Assembly: GCA_013152845.1 (NCBI GenBank)
Contig: JAADFM010000056.1
Coordinates: forward strand, 1 to 15,715
Direction of reading: 5' to 3'
Length of the DNA: 15,715 nt
Source: Methanobacteriota archaeon
GTDB taxonomy: Archaea > Hydrothermarchaeota > Hydrothermarchaeia > Hydrothermarchaeales > JAADFM01
This document shows, piece by piece, positions 1,742-7,776 of this stretch; positions within the stretch are counted from its first letter, which is position 1, and every line of letters starts with the position of its first letter. Made by a program: the position numbers and the translations under genes. Below the pieces are notes generated by a model. It was not told where the DNA came from and did no database searches. It saw only the letters and a list, made by a program, of their open reading frames with translations.

Positions 1742-2998
1742 ATGACGAAATCCGAGGAACTGTTCGAGGAGTCCAAGGCGGTCCTGGTGGGCGGGGTGGA
1801 CTCCCCGGTCCGGGCCATGAAACCCTACCCCTTCTTCACCGCCAGGGGCGAAGGCTCGAGGATATATGACGTTGACGGGAACTCCTACATCGACTACTGC
1901 CTGGCCTACGGGCCGCTGATACTGGGCCACGCCCATCCCGAGGTCATGGCCGCTGTGAGGGAGCAGCTTGAGAGGGGCACCGCCTACGGCACCCCCACGG
2001 AGCTGGAACTGCAGTTCGCCGAGAAGATCGCCAGGCACGTCCCTTCCATCGAGATGGTGCGCTTCGTCAACACCGGCACCGAGGCCACCATGGGCGCCAT
2101 CCGCCTGGCCCGGGGCTGGACCGGCAGGGACAAGATTATCAAGTTCGAGGGGGCCTTCCACGGCGCCCACGACTACGTGCTGGTGAAGGCGGGCTCCGGG
2201 GCCACCACACACGGGGTCCCCACCTCGGCCGGGGTCCCGGTGGACACCACAAAGAACACCCTGCTGTGCCCCTTCAACGACCGGGAGGCGGTGGAGGGAC
2301 TTGTCAAGGCCCACGACGACATCGCCGCCGTCATCCTGGAGCCCGTCATCGGTAACATGGGCTGCATCATGCCGGAGGAGGGCTACCTGAAATTCCTCAG
2401 GGAGGTCACCGAGGAAAACGGCATCGCCCTCATCTTCGACGAGGTCATCACAGGCTTCCGGCTGGGACTGGGGGGCGCCCAGGAGTACTTCGGCGTGAAA
2501 CCGGACATCACCACCCTGGGCAAGATAGCGGGAGGAGGCCTCCCTATAGGAATCATCGGGGCCTCAAGGGAGATTATGGAGAACATGTCTCCGGTGGGCC
2601 CGGTCTACCAGGCCGGGACCTTCAACGGCAACCCCCTGTCCATGACCGCGGGATACACCGCTGTGAGCATCCTGGAGAAGGGGGACGTCTACGAGCATAC
2701 CCGGGGCCTGGCCGAGAAGCTCCGCTCCGGCCTTGCCGACATCACATCAGACCTGGGGATAGCGACCAAAATCTACGGGCTGGAGTCCATGTACCAGATG
2801 TACTTCACCGACACCGACGTGGTGGACAGTGCGACAGCCCTGGCCGCGGACAAGGACCTCTTCCTGCGCTACCAGCAGGGTCTCCTGAAGGAGGGCCCGT
2901 CCCAGTACGAGTGCAACTTCATATCCGCGGCCCATTCGGAGGAGGACATCGACTATACCCTGGAGAAGGCCGAGGATGTTTTGAAGTCCCTCAACTAG
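1742..2998 (+). CDS. hemL: Glutamate-1-semialdehyde 2,1-aminomutase
   Basis: HemL converts glutamate-1-semialdehyde to 5-aminolevulinate in the C5 tetrapyrrole pathway; it is a cytosolic PLP enzyme of fold type I. The 418-residue product has the usual family length. The N-terminal GGVDSPVRA motif, the glycine-rich NTGTEATMGAIRLAR cofactor-phosphate region, the FDEVITGFR segment (PLP-pyridine aspartate) and the TTLGKIAGGGLPIG motif, with Lys261 as Schiff-base lysine, are all present. The ATG at 1742 was chosen because a TATA box and GGTGAT site precede it and homologues begin with a similar SEELFEESK helix; the longer frame from 1646 adds a proline-rich, unconserved extension. It ends in TAG followed immediately by TAA, and its last 8 bases overlap the convergent HgcAB-like gene. 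hemC lies 1.8 kb downstream on the same strand. Confidence 0.96.
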   Translation: MTKSEELFEESKAVLVGGVDSPVRAMKPYPFFTARGEGSRIYDVDGNSYIDYCLAYGPLILGHAHPEVMAAVREQLERGTAYGTPTELELQFAEKIARHVPSIEMVRFVNTGTEATMGAIRLARGWTGRDKIIKFEGAFHGAHDYVLVKAGSGATTHGVPTSAGVPVDTTKNTLLCPFNDREAVEGLVKAHDDIAAVILEPVIGNMGCIMPEEGYLKFLREVTEENGIALIFDEVITGFRLGLGGAQEYFGVKPDITTLGKIAGGGLPIGIIGASREIMENMSPVGPVYQAGTFNGNPLSMTAGYTAVSILEKGDVYEHTRGLAEKLRSGLADITSDLGIATKIYGLESMYQMYFTDTDVVDSATALAADKDLFLRYQQGLLKEGPSQYECNFISAAHSEEDIDYTLEKAEDVLKSLN

Positions 2999-4034
2999 TA
3001 AGGGATATCGCTTCCACCGGGCACTGGGTTATACAGGCCCTGCACACTACACATTCCTCGCCCCTGGCCATCACCGCCTTTTTCCCCTCCATGGCATAGA
3101 CCCCTTTGGGGCAGACGTCGTGGCACAGGGCGCATCCGATGCACTTCTCGGGGTCGAGGACGACCTTCCCTCCGATGGCCCCCCTGCCCTCGAAGACCAC
3201 CGGGCCGATGCCGCGGACCCCGAGCCTGTCCAGGATTGGGTCCAGGTCGCTCTTGTAGATGGGGGAAATCCCCCCGAAATCTATGCCGATCATGGCGGCG
3301 ATGACCATGGCTCCAATGAAGGTCCCGTACCCAGAACCCCCGGTCATGACATGGACCAGAAGGCCCGCCCCGAGGAAGACCTCCGTGGACAGGAGTTTGG
3401 CATAACCGGACCTCCCCGGGAGATAGGGGTATAGGGCGAGCATCAGCACTACGAGGACGCCCCCCAGGACGGCCGCCTCCTGGAACCAGGCCCGCTTGAA
3501 GACGAAGAGGAGGGCGGCTATAATGAGATAGAAGGGGAAGATGCTGCCGATCCCGGCATCAAGCCGGTCCATTAGGTCGAATTTCACCCTCCTCATCTCA
3601 TCTGTCTTTTTGAAATCTCTCCTGATGTATTCCGGGATGTCCCTGGCATAGACCGGCCCGAACCTGCACCTCCAGCCCGTCTCCTTTTTTATCATCTCGG
3701 TATCCATCCCGGGGGCCGAGAGCTGGGGCAGGATGAGGGTCCTGTGCTTCACCTTCTCGCCGATGCGGCTGGTCTTCAGGACCGAGATGACGGAATGGGC
3801 GCTGAAGTGGCCCGCCTCGGCGGCACACCAGACGTTTATCCCGTGGGAGGGAGCCACCAGGAGATAGCAGTCCAGGTCTTTGAGATGCTTGGACACCCGC
3901 TTCACCGTGAGGTCGAAGTTGGAGGTCACCAGCACCGGGCTTGTCTCGTCCGGGCTTCCGAAGACCCTCAGGCCCGTCTCTGTCTCCAGGGGGAAGAGCC
4001 GGAAGAGGGTGCCTATCAGGGTTCTGATGGCCGT
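2991..4034 (-). CDS. HgcA-HgcB-like fusion protein (corrinoid domain, membrane segments, 2x[4Fe-4S] ferredoxin)
   Basis: The chain resembles HgcA, the corrinoid protein of mercury methylation, fused to HgcB, its ferredoxin. Numbering from the first conventional start (GTG at 3935, 314 residues), the PVLVTSNF-like strand precedes a cap-helix motif GINVWCAA with Cys37, the position of the cobalt-ligating cysteine of HgcA; a LILPQLSAPGMD segment and GPVYARDIP follow. Hydrophobic segments lie at about 129-146, 153-170, 184-200 and 203-218. Two CxxCxxCxxxC clusters (Cys265-275 and Cys295-305) form the ferredoxin end; the C-terminal cysteines usual in HgcB are absent. The frame is open up to 4082, and homology seems to continue upstream of the GTG (GLRVFGSPDETSP), so I place the start tentatively at an ACG at 4034, seven bases after a GGAGG. 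It overlaps the upstream methyltransferase by 19 bp. Corrinoid-dependent methyl transfer at the membrane is inferred; fused forms are known in other archaea, and to my knowledge mercury methylation by them is not established. Confidence 0.85.
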   Translation of the reverse strand, partial: TAIRTLIGTLFRLFPLETETGLRVFGSPDETSPVLVTSNFDLTVKRVSKHLKDLDCYLLVAPSHGINVWCAAEAGHFSAHSVISVLKTSRIGEKVKHRTLILPQLSAPGMDTEMIKKETGWRCRFGPVYARDIPEYIRRDFKKTDEMRRVKFDLMDRLDAGIGSIFPFYLIIAALLFVFKRAWFQEAAVLGGVLVVLMLALYPYLPGRSGYAKLLSTEVFLGAGLLVHVMTGGSGYGTFIGAMVIAAMIGIDFGGISPIYKSDLDPILDRLGVRGIGPVVFEGRGAIGGKVVLDPEKCIGCALCHDVCPKGVYAMEGKKAVMARGEECVVCRACITQCPVEAISLTS

Positions 4035-4717
4035 ATCAATCCCTCCTTTTCCGCTATGACCGTCTCCAGAGAGAAGGCCCGCTTAGTGGAGATTATCCTG
4101 AAGCCTGCTTCCCTCATCTTTTCCTTCAAGCCCTTGACAGGTCTGGTAGAGGTCTGGGTGAGGACGAAGGTTAAAATGAGGAGGGGAATCCTGGTGAGGT
4201 GATAGAAGGTCTTCTTCAGGGCGGACAGCAGGAGACAGGAAAGGCAGCATGAATCGATTTCGGGCACCACCTCGTCGGCGATTATCAAAAGCCCCCCATC
4301 TTTCAGGAGCCTGTGGGCCTCCCTCAGGGCGTACTCTTGTTCATCCCGGGAAAGTTCGCTGAAGACCAGGGTGGCGGTCACCTTGTCGAAGCTTCCGTCC
4401 TCAAGGGAATCCATCTCCGCCACCCCCATCTCTCTGAACTCTATCCGGTCATTCAGCCCCCTGGCGGCAGCCTTCTCTATCGCAACTTCAAGCATGGCAG
4501 TGGAGATAATACCTGTGACTTTTGCGCCCCTATCAGCCATCAACACGGCAAGGGTGCCGGTGCCGCAGCCCATGTCCAGGACCCTGTCACCTTCCTCGAC
4601 CATTGAGGCCATGTCCCCTTTGACCTTCCCCACCATGCCAAGGGACAGGAGGTTTATCCCCAGGTCATATCTCCTGGGCACGGTCTCCAGGACCTTCATG
4701 TAGACATAGCTGAACAT
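4016..4717 (-). CDS. cpaM: Class I SAM-dependent methyltransferase, CpaM-like (corrinoid-protein-associated)
   Basis: This 233-residue Rossmann-fold methyltransferase has motif I VLDMGCGTG at about residues 46-54, an acidic post-I strand, and a later GGLLIIADEVVP strand typical of UbiE/MenG-like enzymes. A hydrophobic stretch (about 165-185, CCLSCLLLSALKK...LILTFVL) may be membrane-associated. The family next to HgcAB-like fusions in archaea is named corrinoid protein-associated methyltransferase; I apply that name from recalled context and N-terminal style (FSYVYMKVLE...RRYDLG), not from a search. The ATG at 4717 was chosen over a TTG at 4741 because the divergent TATA element (4743-4751) predicts transcription starting near 4720, making the mRNA practically leaderless and placing 4741 outside it. 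TGA is followed in frame by TAG. The gene overlaps the HgcAB-like frame, which implies translational coupling. Its substrate could be the corrinoid protein or a lipid quinone; this is undetermined. Confidence 0.75.
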   Translation of the reverse strand: MFSYVYMKVLETVPRRYDLGINLLSLGMVGKVKGDMASMVEEGDRVLDMGCGTGTLAVLMADRGAKVTGIISTAMLEVAIEKAAARGLNDRIEFREMGVAEMDSLEDGSFDKVTATLVFSELSRDEQEYALREAHRLLKDGGLLIIADEVVPEIDSCCLSCLLLSALKKTFYHLTRIPLLILTFVLTQTSTRPVKGLKEKMREAGFRIISTKRAFSLETVIAEKEGLIRPSEP

Positions 4718-5718: not shown

Positions 5719-6076
5719 TCAGCCCAGGCGCTTCGGTTTTTTCATCCCTTCCCTTATCACTTCAAGGAACTTCTTCCTGTTGAAACCCTTCCGCAGGACC
5801 GGGACTCCCAGCTGGTCCGTTGTGTAATTATAGGCCGTAACTGCGACGATGTTGGCCATGGGGTCGTAGTCGAGAATCTTGTTTATGGCCTCGTCCCCGG
5901 GCATGACCGGCATCTTTATGTCCATGAGGGTGAGGTCCGGCCCGGTACTCCCTGAACTTCTCCACCGCCTCCTGGCCGTTATAGGCCCTGATGATTTCAT
6001 ATTCCTTGCCCAGGAGCATCCCGTATAGGGTATGCAGCTCCTTTTCATCCTCGGCGATGAGTATCTTCTTCTTCAC
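5719..6076 (-). pseudogene. CheY-like response-regulator receiver domain, frameshifted
   Basis: Two reading frames together encode one receiver domain. The first half (GTG at 6076, KKKILIAEDEKELHTLYGMLL...EKFREYR) carries the acidic Asp/Glu pair after strand 1. The second half (PDLTLMDIKMPVMPGDEAI...VAVTAYN...VLRKGF) carries the phospho-acceptor Asp, the Thr and the Lys. They join at 5941-5943, where removing one C from the plus-strand CCC restores EYR-PDL, the usual junction. The total is about 119 residues, so this is a receiver with no output domain. A GGAGG site lies eight bases before the GTG; an ATG at 6124 is possible but sits at the predicted TATA box. No histidine kinase is in the window. 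Either the consensus has a one-base error or the gene is broken. Confidence 0.85.
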
Positions 6077-6121
6077 GCTCGCCCCTCCTTGGTGCTCATC
6101 TACCGACTCCCTGCCCGTGCC

Positions 6122-6130
6122 CATTTATAC
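6122..6130 (-). promoter_or_regulatory. TATA box for the receiver gene
   Basis: The minus strand reads GTATAAATG. Transcription about 26 bases on would leave a leader of roughly 25 nt with a GGAGG site before the GTG at 6076. It is part of an AT-rich 185-bp divergent spacer with S8e; a second AT-rich block (6150-6175) could be an alternative element. Confidence 0.45.
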
Positions 6131-6223: not shown

Positions 6224-6261
6224 GGGTCCTGGCAAATCAATGGTGCTTTTAAGGTGATTTG

Positions 6262-6645
6262 ATGGTATTATGGCAGGGTAAATCCAAGAGGAAGATTACC
6301 GGCGGCAGGCTCAGGCTGCGCCGGGGCAAGCGCAAGTTCGAGATGGGCCGGGAGCAGACCGAGACCGGCCTGGGCGAGCGCAGGGCCAAGAAGATCAGGG
6401 TCAGGGGGGGCAACTACAAGGTCCGCCTCTTCACCGCCGAGTATGCCAACGTCTTCGACCCCGAGACCAAGGAGGCCAAAAAGGTCAAGATTCACGGCGT
6501 TGCCGGAAACCCGGCCAACCTTCACTTCGTCAGGAGGAACATCATCACCAAGGGGGCGGTCATCGACACCGAGCTCGGGCACGCCAGGGTCACCTCGCGG
6601 CCGGGCCAGGACGGCAACATCAACGCAGTCCTCCTGAAGGGATAG
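6262..6645 (+). CDS. rps8e: 30S ribosomal protein S8e
   Basis: The 127-residue basic protein matches archaeal/eukaryotic eS8 in length and pattern: [15 protein letters not shown] near the N-terminus, RGGNYKVRL in the middle, and [13 protein letters not shown] then [13 protein letters not shown] near the end. It is a small-subunit protein with no bacterial counterpart. ATG at 6262 is preferred over the adjacent TTG at 6259 because AGGTGAT sits three bases before the ATG. It is transcribed alone; the stop, TAG, lies nine bases from the stop of the convergent RNA ligase. No second in-frame stop follows closely, so TAG must terminate efficiently here. Confidence 0.96.
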
Positions 6646-6654
6646 CCCGCTCAG

Positions 6655-7776
6655 TCACCTCTCCAGGCCCAGATTCGCCCTGATTTTGTCAGAACTCCTG
6701 AACTTCTGCCGCCTGATTTCGGCCACGTAATCCTCCCCCTCCTCCCAGACCTCTCCCAGCACGCACTCCACCCCCATCTGGCGCAGGTGCTCCAGGAGGG
6801 CCTCCAGCTCCTCCAGGGACCCCACCCTCACCCTGTGTTCTTCCTCGGCGTTCTCCCCTGCCCTCACCCTCCTGATGGTCTCCACCATGGGCAGGAGGAT
6901 GGACTCCCCCAGGCGCCGGGCCCTCTCCCTGAGTGCAGCATCGTCCTCCTCCATCTCCACCGCCTGGTAGCCCTCCCTTATAATCCTGGAGAAGAAGAAG
7001 TCCCTCCCGTAATCATAGGGGAAGCGGAAGGCATAGCGCAGGTCCGAGGTATTGGTCCTGGAGGTGGTGTACTTGATAGGGGGAAGGGTCATCTCCGGGT
7101 CCTTGAGCACCACACCCTCCCGGTCCTCGGATGCCAGGTCCTCAAGGATGGCGAAGACCTCCCGGGCGCATACTTCCCTGGGGTAGATCCCGAAGAGGCG
7201 CACCGCGGGGATGCCGTAATCCTCCAGGAGGCGGTTCCTCTCCCTGACCGGCAGCGCCCTGCCCGTTGCCTTCTCCCTCAGGTCAAAGACGAAGAAGGCG
7301 AAACCCCCTGCCTCCGGGTATCTGTGGACGGCATAGGGGTTCTCGGTCCCCACCGCCTCCCCGCAGACCACGTAATCGTGCCCGGCGAGGAACTCCTCCA
7401 GGAGGGGTGCGAGCTTGGAGGTCGTGTAGGGGCAGACGTACCCGCCCCTGGTGACGGCCAGTACCCTGCCGTCCATACTGAATGCCCGGACGTTGTACCC
7501 GTTCATCTTCTCCTCCACCGCCACCTCCCGGCCGAAGGACGCCTCCACCATGGGCTCCAGGTAGAATGCCCGCCGAATCTTCGGGAAGCCCCTCACCGCT
7601 GTTATCCCCTCGCCGAGAAAGACGGCCGTCCCCCTCTCCACATGGCTTACGTCCTTCTTGAACACCAGGTACGGGGGCTGGAAGTCCCTGACATGGAAGA
7701 CGGTCTTCCGCTTCAGGGCACCCTCCAGGCGCCAGGGCTCAAGTCCCAGGGCCGCCGCTACCCCCGCGGTATCCAT
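6655..7776 (-). CDS. ATP-dependent RNA ligase, archaeal Rnl3 (Pab1020/MthRnl) family
   Basis: The 373-residue protein has the nucleotidyltransferase signature of covalent ligases in order: motif I EEKMNGYNVR with Lys90 as AMP acceptor, TRGG (motif Ia), GFAFFVFDL (motif III/IIIa), EGVVLK (motif IV) and IKYTTS (motif V). The all-helical C-terminal extension with FPYDYGRDFFFSRI and the basic RSSDKIRANLG end are typical of the Rnl3 family, whose characterised members join or circularise 5'-phosphate, 3'-OH RNA. The physiological substrate is unknown. The ATG at 7776 directly abuts the TGA of the four-CBS gene (TGAATG), so it is the last gene of a three-gene operon and probably translationally coupled to its CBS partner. 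Confidence 0.9.
   Translation of the reverse strand: MDTAGVAAALGLEPWRLEGALKRKTVFHVRDFQPPYLVFKKDVSHVERGTAVFLGEGITAVRGFPKIRRAFYLEPMVEASFGREVAVEEKMNGYNVRAFSMDGRVLAVTRGGYVCPYTTSKLAPLLEEFLAGHDYVVCGEAVGTENPYAVHRYPEAGGFAFFVFDLREKATGRALPVRERNRLLEDYGIPAVRLFGIYPREVCAREVFAILEDLASEDREGVVLKDPEMTLPPIKYTTSRTNTSDLRYAFRFPYDYGRDFFFSRIIREGYQAVEMEEDDAALRERARRLGESILLPMVETIRRVRAGENAEEEHRVRVGSLEELEALLEHLRQMGVECVLGEVWEEGEDYVAEIRRQKFRSSDKIRANLGLER

What the first reader, a model, noticed from the sequence alone, without database searches (positions are those of the whole stretch)
2991..4717. HgcA-HgcB-like fusion and associated methyltransferase between hemL and hemC
Seen: one chain with an NVWCAA cap-helix cysteine, about four membrane segments and two 4Fe-4S motifs, preceded by an overlapping SAM methyltransferase, between two tetrapyrrole genes. 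Known: HgcA uses a cap-helix cysteine to ligate cobalt, and HgcB is its ferredoxin. Inferred: a corrinoid-dependent methyl-transfer system of unknown native substrate, with cofactor-precursor genes next door. Whether it methylates mercury or does something else is open.
Basis: partly seen in the sequence, partly recalled or inferred. Interest (0 to 1): 0.8.

Follow-up and report, generated by a model that had tools for sequence, protein, structure and literature searches.

The report
SAM methyltransferase paired with HgcAB-like fusion
Two adjacent genes of an uncultured archaeon encode a likely methyl-transfer machine related to, but distinct from, the enzymes that make methylmercury; its helper methyltransferase travels with it in bacteria and archaea and is sometimes fused to it, which makes its unknown job easier to test.

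Summary
Minus strand 2991-~4028 encodes a corrinoid domain with an NVWC cap cysteine, a membrane domain and two [4Fe-4S] motifs; 4016-4717 encodes a class I SAM methyltransferase upstream. Both are curated NCBI families: HgcAB_like NF043039 and its partner CpaM NF043040. So this is a new member of a known kind for which I found no assigned function. It fails tests for bona fide HgcA and HgcB: score cut-offs, NVWCAAGK motif, Cys73 equivalent, tail cysteines.

CpaM is upstream of or fused to HgcAB-like in 76 of 78 evaluable loci. Both families exceed their cut-offs in exactly the same 7 of 192 and the same 10 of 294 genomes. Single-chain CpaM-HgcA-HgcB proteins arose at least twice. CpaM is beside 0 of 35 bona fide HgcA loci. 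The hem neighbours recur in 0 of 131 other loci.

Best reading: CpaM loads a SAM methyl onto the corrinoid and the ferredoxin part keeps cobalt reduced; the acceptor is unknown, probably not mercury in the window's clade. This copy is odd: no standard start codon, and its CpaM lacks an otherwise invariant Asp.

The parts
2991..4028 (-). HgcAB-like fusion gene (corrinoid domain, membrane domain, 2x[4Fe-4S]); stop TAG 2991-2993; start uncertain, near 4028; first standard start is GTG 3935
   Evidence: NF043039 392.7 bits over cut-off 285, residues 4-344 of window:2994-4034:-; genome hit 3003-4025; translation
3612..3992 (-). corrinoid-binding (CFeSP/CdhD-type) domain, residues 15-141 of window:2994-4034:-
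3825..3836 (-). cap-helix NVWC, cysteine residue 70
   Evidence: invariant in 32 aligned rows; N[VI]WC in 80 of 80 loci
3285..3575 (-). membrane domain, four predicted helices (residues 154-179, 181-200, 210-230, 236-250)
   Evidence: AlphaFold2 secondary structure; hydropathy resolves three peaks, the first (166-198) wide enough for two helices
3000..3164 (-). HgcB-like 2[4Fe-4S] ferredoxin domain; the chain ends 9 residues after the last cluster Cys and has no Cys73 equivalent and no tail Cys
   Evidence: Fer4 families; fold match; translation
4016..4717 (-). cpaM, class I SAM methyltransferase (233 aa, ATG 4717), overlapping the start of the HgcAB-like frame
   Evidence: NF043040 257.7 bits over cut-off 180; PF13649/PF08241/PF01209
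4556..4570 (-). SAM-binding motif I GCGTG of CpaM
   Evidence: conserved in the 77-row alignment
4505..4510 (-). place where the Asp after strand 2 is missing in this copy (ATT|ATC)
   Evidence: Asp in the other 76 of 77 aligned CpaM rows, gap only in the window
4226..4258 (-). 11-residue insertion found only in this CpaM (about IDSCCLSCLLL)
   Evidence: gap in the other 76 of 77 rows
   Evidence: PF00202 242.7 bits
4754..5716 (+). context: hemC, porphobilinogen deaminase, divergent from cpaM
   Evidence: PF01379 277.3 bits

Best explanation
The pair is a two-protein methyl-transfer machine. CpaM binds SAM and delivers its methyl to the Co(I) corrinoid held, with the cap cysteine as lower ligand, in the HgcA-like domain. 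The tethered 2[4Fe-4S] domain supplies low-potential electrons to make or restore Co(I). The membrane domain anchors the complex; an even number of helices (four in the model) would put the ferredoxin on the same side as the corrinoid domain. The methyl-cobalt species then methylates an acceptor X. In the window's clade X is probably not Hg(II). Shown here by computation: domains, partnership, fusions, absence of the Hg-specific residues. Inferred: SAM-to-cobalt transfer by CpaM, electron flow, topology, non-mercury acceptor.
Against: Purified bona fide HgcAB takes methyl from SAM without CpaM (PMC11588087), so CpaM could do something else. No acceptor gene is conserved nearby. The window's CpaM lacks the Asp that 76 of 76 others have and the HgcAB-like frame has no standard start, so this copy may be impaired. 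CpaM was, by its name, defined from its neighbourhood, so part of the adjacency is built into the definition. Four genomes with an HgcAB-like gene showed no CpaM at E 1e-25.
Confidence: 0.5

Rival explanations
1. Sequential double methylation: the corrinoid is methylated directly by SAM as in HgcAB, or by a methyl-pterin, and CpaM separately methylates the same end substrate or a precursor with CH3+.
For: Bona fide HgcAB uses SAM without a helper (PMC11588087). CpaM resembles UbiE/Coq5-type small-molecule methyltransferases. G000 also has strong CdhD-family (PF03599) matches on contig C169, so methyl-pterins may be available (inference).
Against: No other widely conserved gene beside the pair. 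Tight 1:1 co-occurrence and fusion suit a dedicated loader at least as well.
Confidence: 0.25
2. Mercury methylation by a fused HgcAB.
For: Homology to HgcA and HgcB, and the cap Cys. A few deep-branching relatives have Cys-rich tails and an ArsR-type or related regulator.
Against: The NVWCAAGK cap motif is in 34 of 34 bona fide HgcA and 0 of 80 HgcAB-like loci; the GVGC (Cys73) motif is in 29 of 33 bona fide HgcB (the other 4 have TGA there) and in none of the 79 HgcAB-like loci with a readable tail, nor in the window. Cys73 to Ala abolished activity (PMC7305189). The fused-hgcAB organisms M. methylutens and P. [quoted passage not shown] Whether those two proteins belong to this clade was not tested.
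Confidence: 0.1
3. CpaM is a reactivase: as in the AdoMet domain of methionine synthase (recalled), it remethylates cobalt only after accidental oxidation, while the working methyl donor is another compound.
For: A SAM enzyme plus a low-potential ferredoxin domain is the equipment reductive reactivation needs (inference).
Against: Close co-occurrence and fusion suit a stoichiometric role. CpaM has the UbiE/Coq5-type fold; no comparison with the methionine synthase activation domain was made.
Confidence: 0.1
4. The window copy is decaying or damaged and does nothing, whatever the family does.
For: No ATG/GTG/TTG start in frame at the conserved N terminus. Codon-exact loss of an Asp present in 76 of 76 other CpaM rows, and an 11-residue insertion seen in none of them. 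The MAG is 62.7% complete.
Against: Both frames are open over their whole length, and the HgcAB half keeps all 42 columns that are invariant in the 31 other rows and 80 of the 81 that are at least 90% conserved there. Non-standard starts exist.
Confidence: 0.2

Closest known systems
HgcAB-like fusion protein, NCBIfam NF043039 (fused HgcAB of Pyrococcus, Methanococcoides, Kosmotoga and Atribacteria are named in PMC7438021)
   Same: Corrinoid domain, membrane domain and 2[4Fe-4S] domain in one chain; score well over the curated cut-off
   Different: Nothing essential. The window's copy lacks a standard start codon. Membership of the cultured fused proteins in the same clade was not tested.
CpaM, corrinoid protein-associated methyltransferase, NCBIfam NF043040
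   Same: Score over cut-off, position directly upstream, GCGTG motif
   Different: This copy lacks the Asp after strand 2 and has an 11-residue insertion
Bona fide HgcA + HgcB (NF040863, NF040864)
   Same: Cap-helix NVWC, CFeSP-type domain, membrane domain, dicluster ferredoxin
   Different: Below both cut-offs (171.3 vs 275; 52.4 vs 99); AEA instead of AGK after NVWCA; no Cys73 or tail Cys; separate clade; CpaM partner; probably one TM helix fewer
CFeSP large subunit / CdhD-type subunit of CODH-ACS
   Different: Membrane and ferredoxin domains instead of the rest of the CFeSP large subunit (its TIM barrel is recalled); NF003195 88.8 vs 306 bits

Membership tests
HgcAB_like NF043039 | whole-protein score over curated cut-off 285 | tested here: met
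   392.7 bits
HgcAB_like NF043039 | corrinoid, membrane and 2[4Fe-4S] parts in one chain | tested here: met
CpaM NF043040 | score over curated cut-off 180 and adjacency to a corrinoid protein | tested here: met
   257.7 bits; overlapping genes
CpaM NF043040 | Asp after strand 2 (SAM ribose contact, role recalled), in 76 of 76 other rows | tested here: not met
   gap in the window only; an alignment feature, not part of the curated cut-off
bona fide HgcA NF040863 | score over cut-off 275 | tested here: not met
   171.3 bits
bona fide HgcA NF040863 | NVWCAAGK cap motif (34 of 34 bona fide loci here) | tested here: not met
   NVWCAAEA; 0 of 80 HgcAB-like loci have GK
bona fide HgcA NF040863 | five TM helices (as described in PMC7305189) | tested here: inconclusive
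   four helices in the model; by hydropathy three peaks here against four in bona fide HgcA, so the method undercounts in both
bona fide HgcB NF040864 | score over cut-off 99 | tested here: not met
   52.4 bits
bona fide HgcB NF040864 | Cys73 equivalent and C-terminal cysteines | tested here: not met
   chain ends PVEAISLTS; GVGC in 29 of 33 bona fide HgcB, TGA in its place in 4
CODH/ACS gamma subunit NF003195 | score over cut-off 306 | tested here: not met
   88.8 bits
Hg methylation | forms MeHg | not testable with these tools
   needs biochemistry
corrinoid methyltransferase | binds cobamide, Cys-on ligation, SAM to Co transfer | not testable with these tools
   only fold and motif evidence

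The most novel reading that the evidence does not exclude
CpaM-HgcAB is a self-contained SAM-to-corrinoid-to-acceptor methylation machine, found in bacteria and archaea, whose native substrate is not mercury. Mercury methylation by HgcAB is a related specialisation marked by the AGK cap motif, Cys73 and tail cysteines. The deep-branching Cys-tailed, ArsR-linked HgcAB-like proteins mark a metal-handling state between the two.
Probability: 0.4. Interest if true: 0.78.

Novelty: new member of a known kind. Interest (0 to 1): 0.55.

Why it matters
What HgcAB-type proteins do natively, and how SAM reaches their buried cobalt, are open. In 2024 SAM was shown to be the methyl donor (PMC11588087); its title calls this unexpected, and the parts I saw describe SAM binding to the complex and name no separate SAM enzyme. 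A sister family in which a SAM methyltransferase is a near-constant partner, and in over a hundred database proteins (117 of the 120 listed, by their precomputed Pfam domains) part of the same chain, gives a one-polypeptide test object for the first half-reaction that needs no mercury. It also gives a residue-level way to keep fused, CpaM-linked sequences out of environmental counts of mercury methylators.

Tried and rejected
Cysteines in the window's CpaM (CCxxC) as a metal site: rejected, the segment is an insertion found in no other of 77 rows. Tetrapyrrole link: rejected for lack of conservation; tblastn with the window's hemL and hemC products hits only the window's own copy among 132 HgcAB-like loci, and among 80 loci nothing but CpaM recurs widely (next cluster 8 loci; ORF calling there was crude and dropped the HgcAB-like ORF in 12 loci). 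Cobalamin riboswitch: no Rfam match in the window at gathering scores. Independence of the Asgard fusion L257: not shown, one clade with the other fusions is not rejected (AU p 0.787). L217+L257 clade test: not finished. Searches for print: in the open-access library found papers on fused HgcAB, but no listed title or abstract start concerned a CpaM-HgcAB chain; subscription papers are mostly not held, and Haft and Gwadz 2023 could not be read.
Full report
WHAT IS THERE. On the minus strand two frames overlap. cpaM runs from ATG 4717 to TGA 4016. The HgcAB-like frame follows and ends at TAG 2991. The HgcAB-like match begins at about nt 4025. No ATG, GTG or TTG lies in frame between the upstream stop and GTG 3935, and a start at 3935 would remove conserved residues (G26, P33). 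ATT at about 4028, next to a GGAGG stretch, is a possible start; a base error is possible too. The flanking aminotransferase and hemC genes lie on the plus strand, convergent and divergent, so the pair is not in an operon with them. With tblastn neither is found in 131 other HgcAB-like loci; those loci have flanks of 0-8 kb and some come from the same genomes.

HOST. The window is contig C56 of a 1.17 Mb, 62.7% complete MAG. Its order holds MAGs whose HgcAB-like genes equal those of SZUA-158 (L033; equal coordinates of G002 and G029) and BMS3Abin16 (L048); the tree rows are identical. Both are described as Ca. Hydrothermarchaeota (PMC6946796 and PMC6759336 passages). HgcAB-like is over cut-off in 5 of 20 genomes of the order, the window's included; bona fide HgcA in 0 of 23 of the phylum. 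The window's sequence groups with rows that are mostly Dehalococcoidia, with one Desulfobacteraceae and three Bathyarchaeota rows (support 89; 97 in the thinner set), not with its own order-mates, which suggests lateral transfer.

PARTNERSHIP. A genome scan gave 276 relatives; the best 80 became loci. A CpaM profile finds CpaM upstream on the same strand in 64 (62 within 56 nt of the match; L063 at 310, L033 at 501), in the same ORF in 12, and not in 4. Of these four, L055 and L091 start at contig ends; no CpaM was found beside L070 and L090. A whole-genome search found none at E 1e-25 in the genomes of L070, L090, L096 and L097; that call had no positive control. In 192 genomes of the class of a Desulfobacterales MAG, HgcAB-like and CpaM exceed their cut-offs in the same 7 genomes, while bona fide HgcA does so in 76. 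In 294 genomes of the class of a Dehalococcoidales MAG both exceed them in the same 10. In all 17 genomes the two matches lie side by side on one contig. In the phylum of a Heimdallarchaeota MAG 33 of 227 have HgcAB-like; 30 of those loci were fetched and all 30 have CpaM. These sets overlap with the 80 loci. Near 35 bona fide HgcA loci (about 1-1.5 kb each side) no CpaM-level match is found; L149 and L163 have weak methyltransferase matches of 27 and 46 bits. The name of the CpaM family says that it was defined by its neighbourhood, so adjacency is partly circular; the lack of any CpaM over cut-off without HgcAB-like in 486 genomes is less so. Only the best candidates per genome were scored in those calls, and related genomes are not independent draws.

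MERCURY RESIDUES. In bona fide loci the cap reads NVWCAAGK in 34 of 34 examined, and HgcB has GVGC in 29 of 33. The other 4 have TGA exactly there with the frame continuing, which fits selenocysteine (possible HgcA/HgcB selenoproteins are cited in PMC11588087). In the HgcAB-like loci GK follows in 0 of 80, GVGC occurs in 0 of 79 with a readable tail (L034 is broken), and 3 have a Cys at tail positions 8-20. The window's chain ends in PVEAISLTS. Cys73Ala abolished methylation, and loss of both tail Cys cut it by 95% (PMC7305189). Two organisms with fused hgcAB did not produce MeHg as tested (PMC5893877). Results that go the other way: L078, L090, L092, L096 and L097 have Cys-rich tails, and four of these five have an ArsR-type or related HTH gene upstream, in L092 fused to CpaM. 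They branch outside the main clade, although long branches meet there. CpaM is present in 2 of these 5. Several Heimdallarchaeota have a CC pair in a tail extension together with CpaM. L037, of the main clade, has an ArsR-type gene nearby on the other strand, and three bona fide HgcA loci gave weak ArsR-type matches (about 22 bits). Only two ArsR-type queries were used. Bona fide hgcAB is linked to ArsR-like regulators in the literature (PMC7438021 passages).

THE WINDOW'S COPY. Its CpaM is the only one of 77 aligned rows without the Asp after strand 2 (a contact to the SAM ribose in class I methyltransferases, recalled), through a codon-exact gap, and the only one with an 11-residue insertion. 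With the missing start codon this raises the possibility that this copy is impaired. The HgcAB half keeps 42 of 42 columns invariant in the 31 other aligned rows and 80 of 81 that are at least 90% conserved.

MECHANISM. Shown by computation: domain make-up, partnership, fusions, absence of the mercury-specific residues. From published biochemistry of the sister family: SAM methylates Co(I), Cys-ligated methylcobalamin forms, the ferredoxin is the proposed electron source (PMC11588087). Inferred: CpaM is the SAM-binding loader here, and the acceptor is a small molecule or metal(loid) other than mercury in the main clade. The lack of a third widely conserved gene argues for a self-contained reaction.

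VERDICT. A real, well-supported pair, and a new member of a family pair that NCBI has already named but for which I found no assigned function. The single-chain forms, the exact co-occurrence and the residue contrast with HgcAB are the useful additions, which covered open-access papers only, listed nothing on them.

Noticed in passing
L161, L164, L166, L169 (bona fide hgcB): TGA at the exact Cys73 codon with the frame continuing in all four, which fits a selenocysteine HgcB; 29 of 33 HgcB examined have Cys there.
   Followed up: partly
L092:1-1245: A metalloregulator ArsR/SmtB-type HTH domain and CpaM in one ORF (NF033788 74.8 bits, NF043040 265.8 bits), upstream of a Cys-tailed HgcAB-like gene.
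   Followed up: partly
L090, L096, L097: HgcAB-like genes with Cys-rich tails and no CpaM found; L090 and L097 have an ArsR-type gene upstream.
   Followed up: partly
L033, L036, L048 and other loci of that subclade: A subclade with a conserved C-terminal extension of about 35 residues (PFDALxFxxPxGxxIxPETIRxFKLNLxGKR) after the ferredoxin domain; role unknown.
   Followed up: no
L123 (G036): Bona fide-scoring HgcA match within an open frame of 842 aa; not examined.
   Followed up: no
window 5719-6124 (-): A response-regulator receiver domain appears split over two overlapping frames, either a frameshifted gene or a sequence error.
   Followed up: no
window 6655-7776 (-): Pab1020-type RNA ligase (PF09414, PF18330), next to ribosomal protein S8e at 6259-6645; fits an archaeal contig.
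   Followed up: no
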